NCBI RefSeq assembly: GCF_900102215.1
Contig: NZ_FNBG01000001.1
Location: 186,001 to 250,000 of the forward strand
DNA: 64,000 nt
Direction of reading: 5' to 3'
Source of the DNA: Fontibacillus panacisegetis
GTDB lineage: Bacteria > Bacillota > Bacilli > Paenibacillales > Paenibacillaceae
Under the pieces are notes generated by a model that had not been told where the DNA came from, made no database searches, and worked only from the letters and a program-made list of their open reading frames with translations. The translations under genes and the position numbers were made by a program. How positions within the stretch are numbered: position 1 is the first letter of the stretch; every line of letters begins with the position of its first letter. Shown here piece after piece: positions 2 through 40,445 of this stretch.

Positions 2-1609
2 TCACGGATTCAATTTATGGTGAAACGAGAGTCCTTTCTTTTAAGATTCGCACAACAATTAGCTGAAAAAGGGGATTATCGATACGCCTTTGAATTTCTT
101 CATAGCTTTGAAGAAGATAAACATATAGTTGATCAATTCATCAAATGGCTCAATGAACAATTCGGAGTTAAGCAGTTATCGGCCAATCATAAAGACAAGG
201 ATGTAGTCCATCTTCCAGTGTACCGTACTGTACATACACTAGACCCCGGTAATTTGTACTTCGGGTTCGACTCTCATCTCGTAAGACAGATATTTGATCG
301 ACTAGTGCACTTTGATTCGGAGAAAGGACAAATCGTTCCGATGCTTGCACATTATTGGGAGGGCAACGAGGATGGAACTGAATGGAAGTTCCATTTGCGA
401 AAAGGAATTACTTTTCACCATGGCAAAGTACTAACCTCCGAGGATGTAGTATTTACGTTAAATCGTTTGCGGTGTTCTCAGACGAATCAGTGGATACTTG
501 AAACGATAGAGCTTGTAGAGGCGCTAGATGATCGAACGGTGAAAATAATTTTACATCAGCCCAATTGGCTGCTCCCCTGTCTGTTATGCTCGTCGTGTGT
601 TTCTATCTTACCGAAGGATCTGCTAACGCAGGATGAACCCTCATTTTGGAGTCAGCCTAGCGGGACAGGACCTTTTCGTGTAGCTAAATGGAGCGATAAT
701 AGCATAGAACTGGCTGTGAATGATAGTTATTTTCTTGGAAGAGCTTATCTTGACGGTGTTAAGATTGTTTTTCTTCCCGATAATATCCCTAATAGATCTA
801 AGGTCAAATGGGAAAATTTGATAAATAATGATGCCCGTGTTCCTTCTCAAGCCGGAGGAGATTGGGAATTGATTGAGACTTTAAGTAAAAGCTGCCTACT
901 TATCTCTTGGAATCGCAACAAGACAGGACCACAGCAATCTCTTGCTTTCCGTCAGGCCGTCAACCTGATTATCGATCGTTCCGGGATGATAGATTATTCT
1001 GGTCAGCAGGGCTATCCTGCCAGAAGCTTTCTTCCAAAAGAGGATACATCCTATGGTATACATAGACATGATGTTGAAGCCGCCAAAAAACTACTTCAAG
1101 AATCCGGCTATGACGGTTCTCCCATCAGTCTTCTTACTACCGAAGCCGATTGTATTGATGCACAATGGATTCAGAAGCAATGTGCCTTGATCGGAATTCC
1201 GGTTGAACTTACATACACCGGAAAGAATGCTCTGACCAAAATCGGAGCTGGACAGGAATCCGATGCTGTTCTTATATGTCTTCTATTTGCTGATGACGAG
1301 ATTTGTGAGCTGGAGAGCTTCCTACAGGAAAATAGCATCATTCACCAGCATCTGGAGCCCGGCCTTCACAATTGGATAAATAGCATAGTCAAAGAAATAT
1401 ACGCTACTAAGTCAGAAGAAAAGCGACGTGTATTACTGCAGCAAATCGAATATCGTCTGCATGATGAAGCCCAGCTCTTATTTTTACTGCATCGCAAAAT
1501 GAACACCTACGTGCATCCTTCTATTCGCGGGCTGGTCATCAACAATTTAGGTTGGATGGATTTCAAAGATATTTGGCTGATTTCAAGCTTGACTGCAAAA
1601 AAAGCATAA
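2..1609 (+). CDS. SgrR-type regulator: HTH fused to an SBP_bac_5 solute-binding domain (5' partial)
   Basis: The reading frame is open to the left edge of the window, so the N-terminus, which should hold most of a winged-helix DNA-binding domain, is missing. The first ~50 visible residues look like the end of that domain and its linker. The rest (~480 residues) matches family 5 oligopeptide/sugar-type solute-binding proteins: the DTLDP-like motif near the start, then the W-x-F-x-L-R-K-G-I-x-F-H-H-G-K signature about residue 125. There is no signal peptide or lipobox, as expected for the cytoplasmic SgrR family, in which the binding domain senses a ligand for the HTH. The target genes cannot be deduced here. 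Its TAA stop (1607-1609) overlaps the first bases of the MITE-like element that follows. Confidence 0.8.
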   Translation, partial: SRIQFMVKRESFLLRFAQQLAEKGDYRYAFEFLHSFEEDKHIVDQFIKWLNEQFGVKQLSANHKDKDVVHLPVYRTVHTLDPGNLYFGFDSHLVRQIFDRLVHFDSEKGQIVPMLAHYWEGNEDGTEWKFHLRKGITFHHGKVLTSEDVVFTLNRLRCSQTNQWILETIELVEALDDRTVKIILHQPNWLLPCLLCSSCVSILPKDLLTQDEPSFWSQPSGTGPFRVAKWSDNSIELAVNDSYFLGRAYLDGVKIVFLPDNIPNRSKVKWENLINNDARVPSQAGGDWELIETLSKSCLLISWNRNKTGPQQSLAFRQAVNLIIDRSGMIDYSGQQGYPARSFLPKEDTSYGIHRHDVEAAKKLLQESGYDGSPISLLTTEADCIDAQWIQKQCALIGIPVELTYTGKNALTKIGAGQESDAVLICLLFADDEICELESFLQENSIIHQHLEPGLHNWINSIVKEIYATKSEEKRRVLLQQIEYRLHDEAQLLFLLHRKMNTYVHPSIRGLVINNLGWMDFKDIWLISSLTAKKA

Positions 1610-2012
1610 GAGGCTGTTCCAAAAGTAGGGTTAGTGTCAAAATAGAAATAGCGGTGCAAGGAAGATGATCCTTGCACCGCTTGATCCTGCCACACATTCT
1701 ATGACCGTATCTCATATGTAATAGTGTCATCATGCGGAATTCCTGAAATTCCTGCAAATGTGCAGGCTTTGTTTATGTAAAGCCTCTAAATGCCCTGAAT
1801 TGCTGCAAATGTGCAGGCTTTCTCTAAGGATTCTCTTCAAACTAGTCTATTCTGAACCATATTCCTGCATTTTTGCAGGCTTTTGTTCATCCTTTCATGG
1901 CTACTATAAAAAAACTGTATTTTTGCATCCTTTTCCTGATATCTTGCCTTTACACTGCTAAACAAGAAGCGTCCCTCAAAGTTATCTTAGATAACTTTGG
2001 GGACAGCCTCTT
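1608..2012 (+). mobile_element. MITE-like non-autonomous element, copy A, carrying a four-palindrome array
   Basis: A 405-bp segment with no credible gene. It begins AAGAGGCTGTTCCAAAAGT, and the reverse complement of its right end begins AAGAGGCTGTCCCCAAAGT (17 of 19 identical), giving terminal inverted repeats. Inside are a strong hairpin with 12-bp arms (AGCGGTGCAAGG / CCTTGCACCGCT, 1649-1680), four TGCA-N4-TGCA palindromes at 1753, 1804, 1866 and 1916, and a right-end hairpin with 10-bp arms (AAAGTTATCT / AGATAACTTT). A second, roughly 90% identical copy lies in opposite orientation at 22074-22465. Two copies with matching ends and no transposase suggest a mobile, non-autonomous element. 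I do not assign a transposon family. The left end abuts the stop codon of the upstream gene, so the hairpins may also end its transcript. Confidence 0.75.
1753..1927. repeat. Four-palindrome array A (TGCA-N4-TGCA, spacing 51-62-50)
   Basis: Palindrome cores start at 1753 (TGCA-AATG-TGCA), 1804 (TGCA-AATG-TGCA), 1866 (TGCA-TTTT-TGCA) and 1916 (TGTA-TTTT-TGCA). The first and third extend to CCTGCA/TGCAGG arms. Units 1-3 are followed by GGCTTT. Centre distances are 51, 62 and 50 bp. The same spacing recurs at 40271-40445 and, in inverted orientation, at 22153-22328. Confidence 0.85.
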
Positions 2013-5593: not shown

Positions 5594-5787
5594 GAGGAAA
5601 AAACTTCCTTTATCCCCTGATAATGAGCTTGTTTTATAAAAATAAGGGAAGTTTCTTCTGCTATAAAAGAGCCAACTGGAGTTTTCAGGACATTTTGAAT
5701 AGTTTAGGAAGCAATAGGGGAATAAATTTCCTCTATTTTCCTAAATGAATCTTATTTTTACCAGATAAGGGAACTATTTTCCCCTAT
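5594..5787. repeat. Four-palindrome array D (GGAA-N5-TTCC, spacing 51-72-51)
   Basis: Cores start at 5596 (GGAA-AAAAC-TTCC), 5647 (GGAA-GTTTC-TTCT), 5719 (GGAA-TAAAT-TTCC) and 5770 (GGAA-CTATT-TTCC), giving spacings of 51, 72 and 51 bp. Most extend to AGGGAA/TTCCCT-type arms. Unit 3 sits inside a larger inverted repeat (5703-5745) whose outer arms are TTTAGGAA and TTCCTAAA. The array lies between the convergent ends of mqnD and the radical SAM gene. The layout matches the TGCA arrays, but the palindrome sequence differs. Confidence 0.75.
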
Positions 5788-8817: not shown

Positions 8818-8904
8818 AAACAAAATAGACTCCTACCAGCGCACAGCAAGCCACTCTGGTAGGAGTCATCAGCCTCATCGGCAATTATGGCGAACTCCAT
8901 CGCC
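8818..8904 (-). promoter_or_regulatory. Fluoride riboswitch (crcB motif) with terminator platform
   Basis: Read on the minus strand, the leader has GGCGATGGAGTTCGCC (first hairpin, 8889-8904), then an ATAA junction, GCCGATGAGGCTGATGA and CTCCTAC, which match the conserved core of the crcB/fluoride aptamer. The 3' aptamer strand GACTCCTACCAG (8856-8867) can instead pair with CTGGTAGGAGTC (8828-8839) to form a 12-bp terminator followed by TATTTTGTTT. Ligand-bound aptamer should prevent terminator formation and allow expression of the CLC-F gene. Confidence 0.93.
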
Positions 8905-8937
8905 ATCATATTGTGAAAACTGTCATTATCTAGAGTC

Positions 8938-22073: not shown

Positions 22074-22465
22074 AAGAAGCTATCCCAAAAGCTATCTAAG
22101 ATAACTTTGAGGGACGCTTCTTGCAGTGGAAAGGCAAAATATCAGGAAAAGCTGCAAAAATGCAGTTTTTTCCAAAGTAGCCATAAAAATATGAACAAAA
22201 GCCTGCCAAAATGCAGGAATATTGTTCAGAATAGACTAGTTTGAAGGGAATCCTTAGAGAAAGCCTGCACATTTGCAGCAATTTAGGGCATTTAGAGACT
22301 TTACATAAACAAAGCCTGCACATTTGCAGGAATTTCAGGAATACCGCATCATGACATTATTACACATGAGATAAGGTCATAGCATTGGCGGGATCAAGCG
22401 GTGCAGGGATCGTCTTCCTTGCACCGCTATTTCTAGTTTTGACACTACTTTTGGGACAGCCCCTT
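22074..22465 (-). mobile_element. MITE-like element, copy B (inverted relative to copy A)
   Basis: A 392-bp segment whose reverse complement is roughly 90% identical to 1608-2012 along its whole length, including the AGCGGTGCA-type hairpin, the four palindromes (22153, 22204, 22266, 22317; spacing 51-62-51) and the end hairpin. Its ends are less alike than those of copy A (AAGGGGCTGTCCCAAAAGT versus AAGAAGCTATCCCAAAAGC). It starts five bases after the stop codon of the alpha-glucosidase gene, so like copy A it abuts a gene end. No transposase is encoded. Confidence 0.75.
22153..22328. repeat. Four-palindrome array B (TGCA-N4-TGCA, spacing 51-62-51)
   Basis: Cores at 22153 (TGCA-AAAA-TGCA), 22204 (TGCC-AAAA-TGCA), 22266 (TGCA-CATT-TGCA) and 22317 (TGCA-CATT-TGCA). 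It is the same array as in copy A, in opposite orientation. One arm carries a mismatch (TGCC), so the palindrome is not perfectly maintained. Confidence 0.85.
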
Positions 22466-22469
22466 AAGG

Positions 22470-40018: not shown

Positions 40019-40074
40019 TATTACACTTCACTTCAATAGCTTATGTACAGCAAAAAATGAAGGCATTCGCAACA

Positions 40075-40153
40075 CTTCCCTACGCTGGTATGATCCAGAT
40101 CAGGTTCGAAGGGTCCGGAATTCACCGTCTCAGCCATTCAAGGCTCCCCTAGT
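40075..40153 (-). promoter_or_regulatory. TPP (thiamine) riboswitch
   Basis: The minus strand shows the THI-box elements in order: CTAGGGGAGCC, GGCTGAGA, ACCCTTCGAACCTGATC, TGGATCATACCAGCG and TAGGGAAG. This is a standard TPP aptamer controlling the tenI-thiO-thiS-thiG-thiF operon. When TPP is plentiful, the downstream terminator should stop transcription. Confidence 0.97.
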
Positions 40154-40270
40154 GCAGATTTTGTATTAAATTAAATACAATATAGCATAAAGATTTCCAA
40201 TATTATAGTCTTAAAGAAGATCTTCATGAGATTTACTGCTTAACTCTAAACGAAATTCGTATAAAATTCT

Positions 40271-40445
40271 TGCAAAAGTGCATGCATTTCATGGTGACAG
40301 CGCCGTTCTGAGTGAAATCCCTGCAAAAATGCAGGCTTTTCACTCAATTCATTCCCATATTGCACGACCAGCCTTGAAAAAACTGCACTTTTGCATCAAT
40401 TCTATATGGAAGTGAAATTTCGCCTCCAAAAGATGTATTTTTGCA
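40271..40445. repeat. Four-palindrome array C (TGCA-N4-TGCA, spacing 51-62-50)
   Basis: Cores at 40271 (TGCA-AAAG-TGCA), 40322 (TGCA-AAAA-TGCA), 40384 (TGCA-CTTT-TGCA) and 40434 (TGTA-TTTT-TGCA). Spacing is identical to array A, but the surrounding sequence is strongly diverged and lacks the MITE ends. The third and fourth spacers are the reverse complements of the first and second. It lies between the thiazole operon leader and the end of arsC; 40446-40634 shows nothing else. Confidence 0.85.

What the first reader, a model, noticed from the sequence alone, without database searches (positions are those of the whole stretch)
1753..1927. Four-palindrome intergenic arrays with fixed geometry but variable palindrome sequence
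Seen directly: four arrays (1753-1927, 5594-5787, 22153-22328, 40271-40445), each with four short palindromes. Three use TGCA-N4-TGCA at spacings 51-62-50, 51-62-51 and 51-62-50; one uses GGAA-N5-TTCC at 51-72-51. The central interval differs by 10 bp, one DNA turn, so helical phase is kept. Array C keeps spacing despite strongly diverged linkers and no MITE ends. In C the third and fourth spacers are reverse complements of the first and second, implying an inverted two-plus-two design. Inference: spacing is under selection, either for a DNA-binding protein that bridges sites on one face of the helix, or for a folded RNA of four hairpins. I do not know a named element with this layout.
Basis: partly seen in the sequence, partly recalled or inferred. 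Interest (0 to 1): 0.8.

Follow-up and report, generated by a model that had tools for sequence, protein, structure and literature searches.

The report
Nuclease genes with four-site repeat arrays
The four short palindromes in each array look like the matching DNA address of a poorly known family of nuclease-plus-DNA-reader proteins; each family member seems to have its own address sequence on one rigid four-site layout, and copies of that layout are scattered through the genomes of Paenibacillus and related bacteria.

Summary
The window holds four arrays, three of them independent (A and C are copies of one MITE). Sites lie at about 51-62-51 bp, or 51-72-51 for the GGAA type. In a 392-genome sample of the order, TGCA-type arrays occur in 43 genomes and GGA-N7-TCC-type arrays in 83. 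Between two related species, site cores and loops are conserved in place while linkers diverge.

The new result is a partner gene. A protein of about 200-280 aa, with an N-terminal PD-(D/E)XK (DUF559/Vsr-like) nuclease domain and a C-terminal winged helix, has such an array downstream in 49 of 57 intact loci, against 0 of 178 control windows. Site sequence differs between paralogs; geometry does not. Site divergence tracks the winged helix, and the nuclease domain adds little or nothing. In the sample, every genome with two or more GGA-type hits, and every genome with TGCA arrays, carries the gene.

Best reading: a nuclease-array system that works like REPIN-RAYT, with an unrelated enzyme and a helically phased four-site element. 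Protein binding and mobilisation are inferred, not shown. The folded-RNA alternative is disfavoured. Eight full-text searches found no description.

The parts
1753..1927 (.). Array A, TGCA type: four sites at 1753-1764, 1804-1815, 1866-1877, 1916-1927 (51-62-50)
1607..2012 (+). ~400-bp MITE carrying array A; IS-like terminal repeats (GAGGCTGTTCCAAAAG / GAGGCTGTCCCCAAAG); at least 40 copies of 90% identity or more in the own genome (40 is the number the search scored)
5596..5782 (.). Array B, GGA-N7-TCC (GGAA-N5-TTCC) type: sites 5596-5608, 5647-5659, 5719-5731, 5770-5782 (51-72-51); likely cognate gene by site type and spacing: G000 C60:49211-49873 (match coordinates)
22153..22328 (.). Array C, TGCA type: sites 22153-22164, 22204-22215, 22266-22277, 22317-22328 (51-62-51)
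22074..22466 (-). Second copy of the MITE, inverted, carrying array C (88.7% over 408 columns to the first)
40271..40445 (.). Array D, TGCA type, unrelated linkers, no MITE ends seen: sites 40271-40282, 40322-40333, 40384-40395, 40434-40445 (51-62-50); likely cognate gene for A, C, D by site type: G000 C36:90200-90910

Best explanation
The arrays are the cis element of a gene family. SHOWN (in sequence): a protein of about 200-280 aa, with an N-terminal PD-(D/E)XK nuclease domain (DUF559/Vsr-like fold) and a C-terminal winged helix, has such an array 3' of its gene in most intact copies examined; array-rich genomes in the sample have the gene; paralogs have different site sequences on the same four-site layout. 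INFERRED: the winged helix binds one ~20-24 bp site; four bound units sit on one face of the DNA (5, 6 or 7, then 5 helical turns apart) as two pairs pointing at each other and assemble into one complex across the dyad; the nuclease domain cuts or nicks DNA in that complex and, by transposition or break-induced copying, spreads the array, sometimes with the gene, to other intergenic places. The dispersed arrays, such as D in this window, would be the non-autonomous copies, in the way REPINs are to RAYTs. A and C spread as passengers of an IS-type MITE.
For: (1) Linkage: 49 of 57 unique intact family loci with at least 250 bp downstream have a four-site array there (score >30); 0 of 178 control windows exceed 30; median distance from the end of the protein match to the first window 102 bp. 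Four of the 57 (L203, L245, L328, L346) were first fetched because of an array; without them 45 of 53. Two of the eight negatives (L404, L412) have an array upstream. Seven of 10 broken copies also have one downstream (three of these were fetched through arrays). (2) Own genome: the C36 gene has imperfect TGCA arrays on both sides, the C60 gene a GGAA array of 51-71/72-51 type, matching the solo arrays in motif and spacing. (3) Co-occurrence in the 392-genome sample: 58 of 58 genomes with two or more GGA-type hits have the gene (298 of 392 do; Fisher p 5e-8), and 43 of 43 genomes with TGCA arrays (p 5e-6); relatedness of genomes is not corrected for. (4) Co-divergence: site distance vs protein distance r=0.87 (n=49); C-terminal part given N-terminal r=0.51, p 2e-4; N given C 0.08, p 0.04; within two site groups C|N 0.52 and 0.55, N|C -0.02 and -0.09. 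(5) Presumed catalytic D84 and E97 invariant in 58 of 58; model pLDDT 86, catalytic part like homing endonuclease I-Bth0305I (Z 10.9), C-terminal part like MarR-type winged helices (Z about 10). (6) In-place selection between P. oralis and G011. (7) Up to ~190 hits per genome, both strands counted (about 95 arrays), and species-specific linker families read by eye.
Against: No binding, cutting or movement has been measured. No clean empty site or target-site duplication was found: of 20 P. oralis arrays 13 could be placed in G011, 12 are present in both (one split by an IS-like insertion in P. oralis) and one is mostly deleted; seven were not placed. Linked genes and arrays co-diverge by common descent; only the partial correlations go beyond that. 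Eight of 57 loci have no downstream array. Outside the order 10 of 23 loci exceed 30 downstream and I trust 7; no matched control was run for those genomes. Many own-genome TGCA arrays spread on an unrelated MITE. Gene copies are often broken, so some arrays may be relics. Most sampled genomes with the gene (240 of 298) have fewer than two GGA-type hits, though they may hold other core types. Arrays conserved in place for long suggest a host role as well as, or instead of, mobility.
Confidence: 0.6

Rival explanations
1. Regulator or chromosome-organiser: the nuclease fold serves assembly rather than cutting, the gene-linked array is for autoregulation, and dispersed arrays are host-useful sites (transcription road-blocks, insulators or nucleoid anchors) kept by selection.
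For: In-place conservation of cores and loops; all sites on one face of the DNA; arrays lie near 3' ends and between convergent genes (34 convergent, 8 divergent against 9 and 18 for other gaps of 250 bp or more); most placed arrays are shared between P. oralis and G011.
Against: Patchy occurrence among species of one genus and 0 to ~190 hits per genome; invariant D84 and E97 argue for a working nuclease; the gene-linked array is mostly 3' of the gene (49 of 57) and upstream in only 9 of 58; flanking-protein families repeat in at most 7 loci, one cluster of 5 being the nuclease family itself.
Confidence: 0.25
2. Homing-type or defence nuclease: the protein cuts DNA and the dispersed arrays are decoys, protected self-sites or broken targets.
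For: Best structural match of the catalytic part is a homing endonuclease; broken gene copies are frequent.
Against: The gene sits beside an intact site array, which a homing enzyme would normally destroy (recalled principle); no PADLOC match better than E 0.05 for three members; no phage record with P0001.
Confidence: 0.1
3. Folded RNA or terminator cluster of four hairpins.
For: Palindromes with 4-nt loops and T-rich flanks; position near 3' ends; at the second to fifth positions outside TGCA pairing exceeds independence (207 vs 155, 194 vs 169, 177 vs 140, 312 vs 213 of 428), though pooled species-specific motifs can cause this.
Against: At the first position outside TGCA Watson-Crick pairs are 228 of 428 against 208 expected, G-T 10 and A-C 12 (arrays not oriented); many paralog arrays are hardly palindromic; dyad symmetry and one-turn steps have no RNA reason; the only Rfam matches in the window are two riboswitches elsewhere.
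Confidence: 0.03
4. All arrays are ordinary MITE copies descending from recent duplication.
For: True for A and C and at least 40 copies in the own genome.
Against: Own-genome arrays with unrelated linkers and no MITE ends; 107 arrays distinct by k-mers from many species; other core types with the same geometry.
Confidence: 0.02

Closest known systems
REP/REPIN and RAYT (REP-associated tyrosine transposases), PMC2817692 and PMC3116915 (abstracts and outlines seen)
   Same: Dispersed extragenic repeats in inverted arrangement; cognate gene flanked by the repeat; gene and repeat co-evolve; repeat abundance goes with gene presence; species-specific.
   Different: Enzyme is PD-(D/E)XK plus winged helix, not a Y1/HUH tyrosine transposase; element is a rigid four-site array apparently read as double-stranded DNA; GTAG and CGTC tags are not enriched beside the sites; site sequence turns over between paralogs while geometry stays.
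I-Bth0305I-like (EDxHD, Vsr-fold) homing endonucleases
   Same: Fold of the catalytic domain (Z 10.9, rmsd 2.5 over 97 residues).
   Different: Own C-terminal winged helix; gene beside its own sites; dispersed site arrays.
Tn7 TnsA
   Same: PD-(D/E)XK then winged helix (domain order recalled); weak Foldseek match 1t0f, ranks 8 and 13, E about 4e-3.
   Different: TnsB/TnsC partners and Tn7 ends were not searched for; the match is too weak to claim kinship.
DUF559 (PF04480)
   Same: 18 of 58 members match at E <= 0.01; own C36 protein 24.5 bits against cut-off 20.6.
   Different: Added winged helix and linked array; the Pfam entry states no function.

Membership tests
REP/REPIN-RAYT | Cognate gene flanked by the repeat | tested here: met
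   49 of 57 downstream, 9 of 58 upstream; both sides at once only in some, so 'flanked on both sides', as the RAYT abstract says, is met in part
REP/REPIN-RAYT | Enzyme is a Y1/HUH tyrosine transposase | tested here: not met
   PD-(D/E)XK fold with DUF559 matches and winged helix
REP/REPIN-RAYT | GTAG or CGTC tag beside the palindrome | tested here: not met
   GTAG near 19 and CGTC near 23 of 428 TGCA-type sites, the reversed words near 37 and 28
REP/REPIN-RAYT | 20-40 nt hairpin as the unit | tested here: inconclusive
   TGCA sites are palindromes with partly coupled arms; several paralog sites are hardly palindromic
REP/REPIN-RAYT | Mobilised by the enzyme | not tested
   Only indirect: copy number, co-occurrence
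EDxHD/Vsr-type homing endonuclease | Catalytic fold | tested here: met
   Z 10.9 to I-Bth0305I catalytic domain, on a predicted model
EDxHD/Vsr-type homing endonuclease | Full EDxHD motif | tested here: inconclusive
   D84, E97, H104, R119 invariant in A2; motif residues not aligned one by one
EDxHD/Vsr-type homing endonuclease | Gene interrupts its own target site | not tested
   Gene beside a four-site array; gene flanks were not compared with gene-free orthologous loci
Tn7 TnsA | PD-(D/E)XK plus winged helix | tested here: met
Tn7 TnsA | TnsB/TnsC partners and Tn7 ends | not tested
   No search made
MITE (arrays A and C) | Terminal inverted repeats and many like copies | tested here: met
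MITE (arrays B and D) | Terminal inverted repeats and many like copies | tested here: inconclusive
   D: linkers unlike the MITE copies, no MITE ends by eye; B: other GGAA arrays share central linker pieces by eye, ends not tested

The most novel reading that the evidence does not exclude
A previously undescribed class of selfish nuclease-array elements in Bacilli: a single-protein PD-(D/E)XK/winged-helix enzyme whose four-unit DNA complex fixes the site geometry while the recognised sequence diversifies freely, so that one genome can carry several mutually insulated nuclease-array systems, each with its own population of solo arrays.
Probability: 0.5. Interest if true: 0.88.

Novelty: categorically new. 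Interest (0 to 1): 0.8.

Why it matters
It adds what looks like a second, enzymatically unrelated solution to the gene-plus-dispersed-repeat arrangement known from REPIN-RAYT, and offers a large natural series in which DNA-site sequence and a winged-helix reader change together on a fixed scaffold. That makes the DNA-recognition code of the family readable from genomes, may explain many unnamed intergenic repeats in Paenibacillaceae, and gives direct tests of how a nuclease could spread its own binding array.

Tried and rejected
Folded RNA or terminators: disfavoured, with the outer-arm coupling told above. One recent duplication: true only for the MITE copies. Loop-loop pairing between halves: not kept when read by eye in the printed arrays. 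A conserved gene beside solo arrays: clusters of at most 7 loci in 612 flanking ORFs, and one cluster of 5 turned out to be the nuclease family. Phage or plasmid origin: no phage record with P0001; one 2.7-Mb Paenibacillus replicon with the C36 protein; each query was run in one of the two collections only. 8 viral contigs match the TGCA pattern and were not followed. Empty sites by P. oralis/G011 comparison: inconclusive. First fold without an alignment failed (pLDDT 36). A free scan of the centre interval with the palindrome-free detector cannot fix that interval, because a shift of the window moves it by two; outer distances stayed at 49-52 in 44 of 45 and 50-52 in 45 of 45. The centre spacing rests on the palindromic searches. 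A RAYT (Y1) copy-number test was planned and dropped once the partner gene appeared. VIA-align covered mainly the winged helix; absence of other families there is not evidence.

Literature: eight searches for such arrays or such a gene and two for known systems; only the top 8-20 titles of each were seen, of up to 493 hits. None described these arrays or this gene-array pair. PMC3116915 and PMC2817692 were seen as abstract and outline, all others as search listings. TnsA domain order, the EDxHD family description, the homing principle and IS likeness of the MITE ends are recalled.

On checking: I corrected protein length, the fragment count, the PADLOC wording, the number of literature searches, the arm-pairing results and the P. 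oralis/G011 tally, and tested the REP tags.

Full report
OBSERVATION. The four arrays are real and at the stated coordinates. Arrays A (1753) and C (22153) are inverted copies of one MITE of about 400 bp, 88.7% alike over 408 columns; 40 own-genome matches of 90% or more were scored, a lower bound because scoring stopped there. B and D are independent. The window is G000 C41:186001-250000 of a 5.26-Mb draft genome.

GEOMETRY AGAINST CHANCE. In the own genome a three-site TGCA pattern has 86 matches and 0 in the reversed control. 24 arrays, 21 of them at places I picked from that list, all lie at 49-51/61-62/50-51 although wider ranges were allowed. In fetched loci 144 arrays were found; 132 fall within 49-52/60-63/49-52 with enough flank, the other 12 being dropped for geometry or for lying at an edge, and 107 are distinct by k-mers. 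For loci that came from the named scan only the distance to the fourth site was free, because the pattern fixed three sites to 49-53 and 59-65. The GGAA-N5-TTCC type has 28 places and 0 control; 20 arrays, after one spurious row was discarded and with one place (L226) giving none, are all 50-51/72-73/51-52.

VARIABLE CORE, FIXED LAYOUT. The GGAA type is one case of GGA-N7-TCC. This occurs in 83 of 392 genomes of the order and 21 of 49 genera. Five genomes also have control hits there: single ones in G018, G231 and G098, two in G239, and 13 in G152, whose 25 hits are therefore partly doubtful. The TGCA type occurs in 43 of 392 genomes and 15 of 49 genera with no control hit. Genome G001, with no hit of the TGCA or GGAA-N5 patterns, has AGCGGA-N7-TCCGCT arrays of 50-62-50 with one degenerate site each (read by eye). 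In 149 listed matches (typed by hand, one double entry left out, many arrays listed on both strands) the three-site span was 122-129 in 127, 133 in 1, 135-136 in 21, and nothing at 130-132, 134 or 137-139, all of which the pattern allowed: two peaks about one helical turn apart.

IN-PLACE SELECTION. Nine arrays are at orthologous places in P. oralis (G006) and G011. Differences: core 5 of 288, loop 6 of 144, eight flanking bases 59 of 574, linker 116 of 729, flank 1187 of 3672. Cores are biased because the search demanded three exact ones in each genome. Loops were free in the pattern and still differ from linkers (Fisher p 6e-5). Of 20 fetched P. oralis arrays 13 could be placed in G011: these nine, two more present in both, one present in G011 but split by an IS-like insertion in P. 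oralis, and one mostly deleted in G011; seven were not placed. The first nine were found because both sets had been fetched by arrays, so the shared fraction is not an estimate.

HAIRPIN OR DUPLEX SITE. At the first position outside TGCA left and right are nearly independent (228 Watson-Crick of 428 against 208 expected; G-T 10, A-C 12); at the second to fifth they pair more than expected (207 vs 155, 194 vs 169, 177 vs 140, 312 vs 213), which pooled species-specific motifs or symmetric half-sites can cause. Loops are inverted between the two halves. In loci of some paralogs the sites are oriented and poorly palindromic. The two-plus-two orientation was the single best of eight in 43 of 49 arrays and tied best in 3 more, with the caveat that the arrays were found with that orientation.

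THE PARTNER GENE. Two genomes of different genera with a single listed array had homologous genes beside it. The family is in 298 of 392 genomes of the order, 31 of 40 of the genus and 46 of 398 of the class sample, 19 of them outside the order. A detector that needs no palindrome, only four 24-bp windows in two-plus-two orientation with distances 49-53, 60-63 or 71-73, and 49-53, was run on up to 650 bp downstream. 49 of 57 unique intact loci exceed 30; 178 control windows from three genomes have a maximum of 30. The loci are the best-scoring matches plus four fetched through arrays; without those four, 45 of 53. Upstream 9 of 58 exceed 30. Negatives downstream: L373 (short flank), L381, L383, L388, L397, L401, and L404 and L412, which have upstream arrays. 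Seven of 10 broken copies exceed 30 downstream (L115, L150, L274, L358, L387, L391, L413; the first three were fetched through arrays); they are not in the 57. Outside the order 10 of 23 loci exceed 30 downstream; I do not trust L472, L475 and L476, which leaves 7, and L461 has one upstream; no control from those genomes was run.

OWN GENOME. Three intact family genes and one fragment. The C36 gene (90200-90910) has imperfect TGCA arrays on both sides; the C60 gene has a GGAA array of 51-71/72-51; the C53 gene scores only 22 downstream. The window's arrays A, C, D and B thus match the first and second gene in motif and in centre spacing. None of these genes lies in the window.

CO-OCCURRENCE AND CO-DIVERGENCE. 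Of genomes with two or more GGA-type hits 58 of 58 have the gene (p 5e-8); of those with any hit 81 of 83, the two exceptions having one hit each, the level of single control hits. 43 of 43 TGCA genomes have it (p 5e-6). 240 of 298 genomes with the gene have fewer than two GGA-type hits. In the genus sample the nine genomes without the gene show no array (two of the nine are not). These tests ignore relatedness of genomes. Protein and site distances correlate at r=0.87 (n=49). The C-terminal part keeps r=0.51 once the N-terminal part is removed, and 0.52 (n=27) and 0.55 (n=22) within the two site groups; the N-terminal part given the C-terminal keeps 0.08, -0.02 and -0.09. This points to the winged helix as the reader of the site.

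PROTEIN. Intact members are 203-279 aa with crude starts. The 58-member alignment has invariant D84, E97, H104 and R119; two residues after E97 stands K, Q or D in the members I read. DUF559 matches 18 of 58 members at E 0.01, MarR-type models a few. The model with alignment has pLDDT 86 and pTM 0.62, so the relation of the two domains is uncertain. The catalytic part fits the I-Bth0305I catalytic domain (Z 10.9, rmsd 2.5, 97 residues, model 46-158), the C-terminal part MarR-like winged helices (Z about 10, model 162-237). Foldseek E-values are modest (best 6.5e-4).

CONTEXT. With crude ORFs, and 14 of 107 arrays dropped at locus edges, TGCA arrays lie between convergent genes in 34, tandem in 51 and divergent in 8 cases, against 9, 46 and 18 for other gaps of 250 bp or more; 31 overlap a crude ORF, many of these probably spurious. 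The excess of convergent over divergent has p 1e-4.

MECHANISM AND COMPARISON. The closest functional likeness is REPIN-RAYT, where gene and repeat are linked, co-evolve and co-occur (abstracts). Two defining features of that family, the HUH enzyme and the GTAG/CGTC tag, were tested and not met, so I do not file it there. The mechanism proposed, cooperative binding of four winged helices and nuclease action that spreads the array, is inference; binding is likely, mobilisation less sure. The main rival is a host-useful DNA-organising or regulatory role, favoured by in-place conservation. I call it categorically new because no known kind joins this enzyme to such arrays in anything I could search; if mobilisation is shown, it would be an analogue, not a member, of the RAYT kind.

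Noticed in passing
window 1607-2012 and 22074-22466: A MITE with IS-like ends has captured a four-site array and multiplied to at least 40 close copies in the genome.
   Followed up: partly
L302-L308 (G041, another family of the order): Runs of up to eight AACGGAAC-NNN-GTTCCGTT-like sites at 50-52 bp instead of arrays of four; no family gene was found in the fetched stretches.
   Followed up: partly
L187:2361-3200 (P. nanensis): Run of TGCA sites with repeating 51-62-51 intervals, apparently amplified in tandem.
   Followed up: no
L149:150-480 (Lachnospiraceae MAG; the TGCA pattern also hits L129): Several TTGGGTGCAA..TTGCACCCAA palindromes at 52-65-52 with no family gene in the locus; unexplained.
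   Followed up: no
L417:17729 and L433:13313 (G011): Further core type (detector half-site TTGG with a 6-bp centre) in a 50-51/62/50-51 layout within G011.
   Followed up: no
L251 (P. oralis): An IS-like insertion splits site 1 of an array that is present in the related genome G011 (insertion judged by eye).
   Followed up: partly
window 40060-40160 and 8853-8913: TPP riboswitch next to array D, and a fluoride riboswitch (Rfam).
   Followed up: no
L212-L219 (viral contigs): Eight viral contigs match the three-site TGCA pattern; not examined beyond one glance at L214.
   Followed up: no
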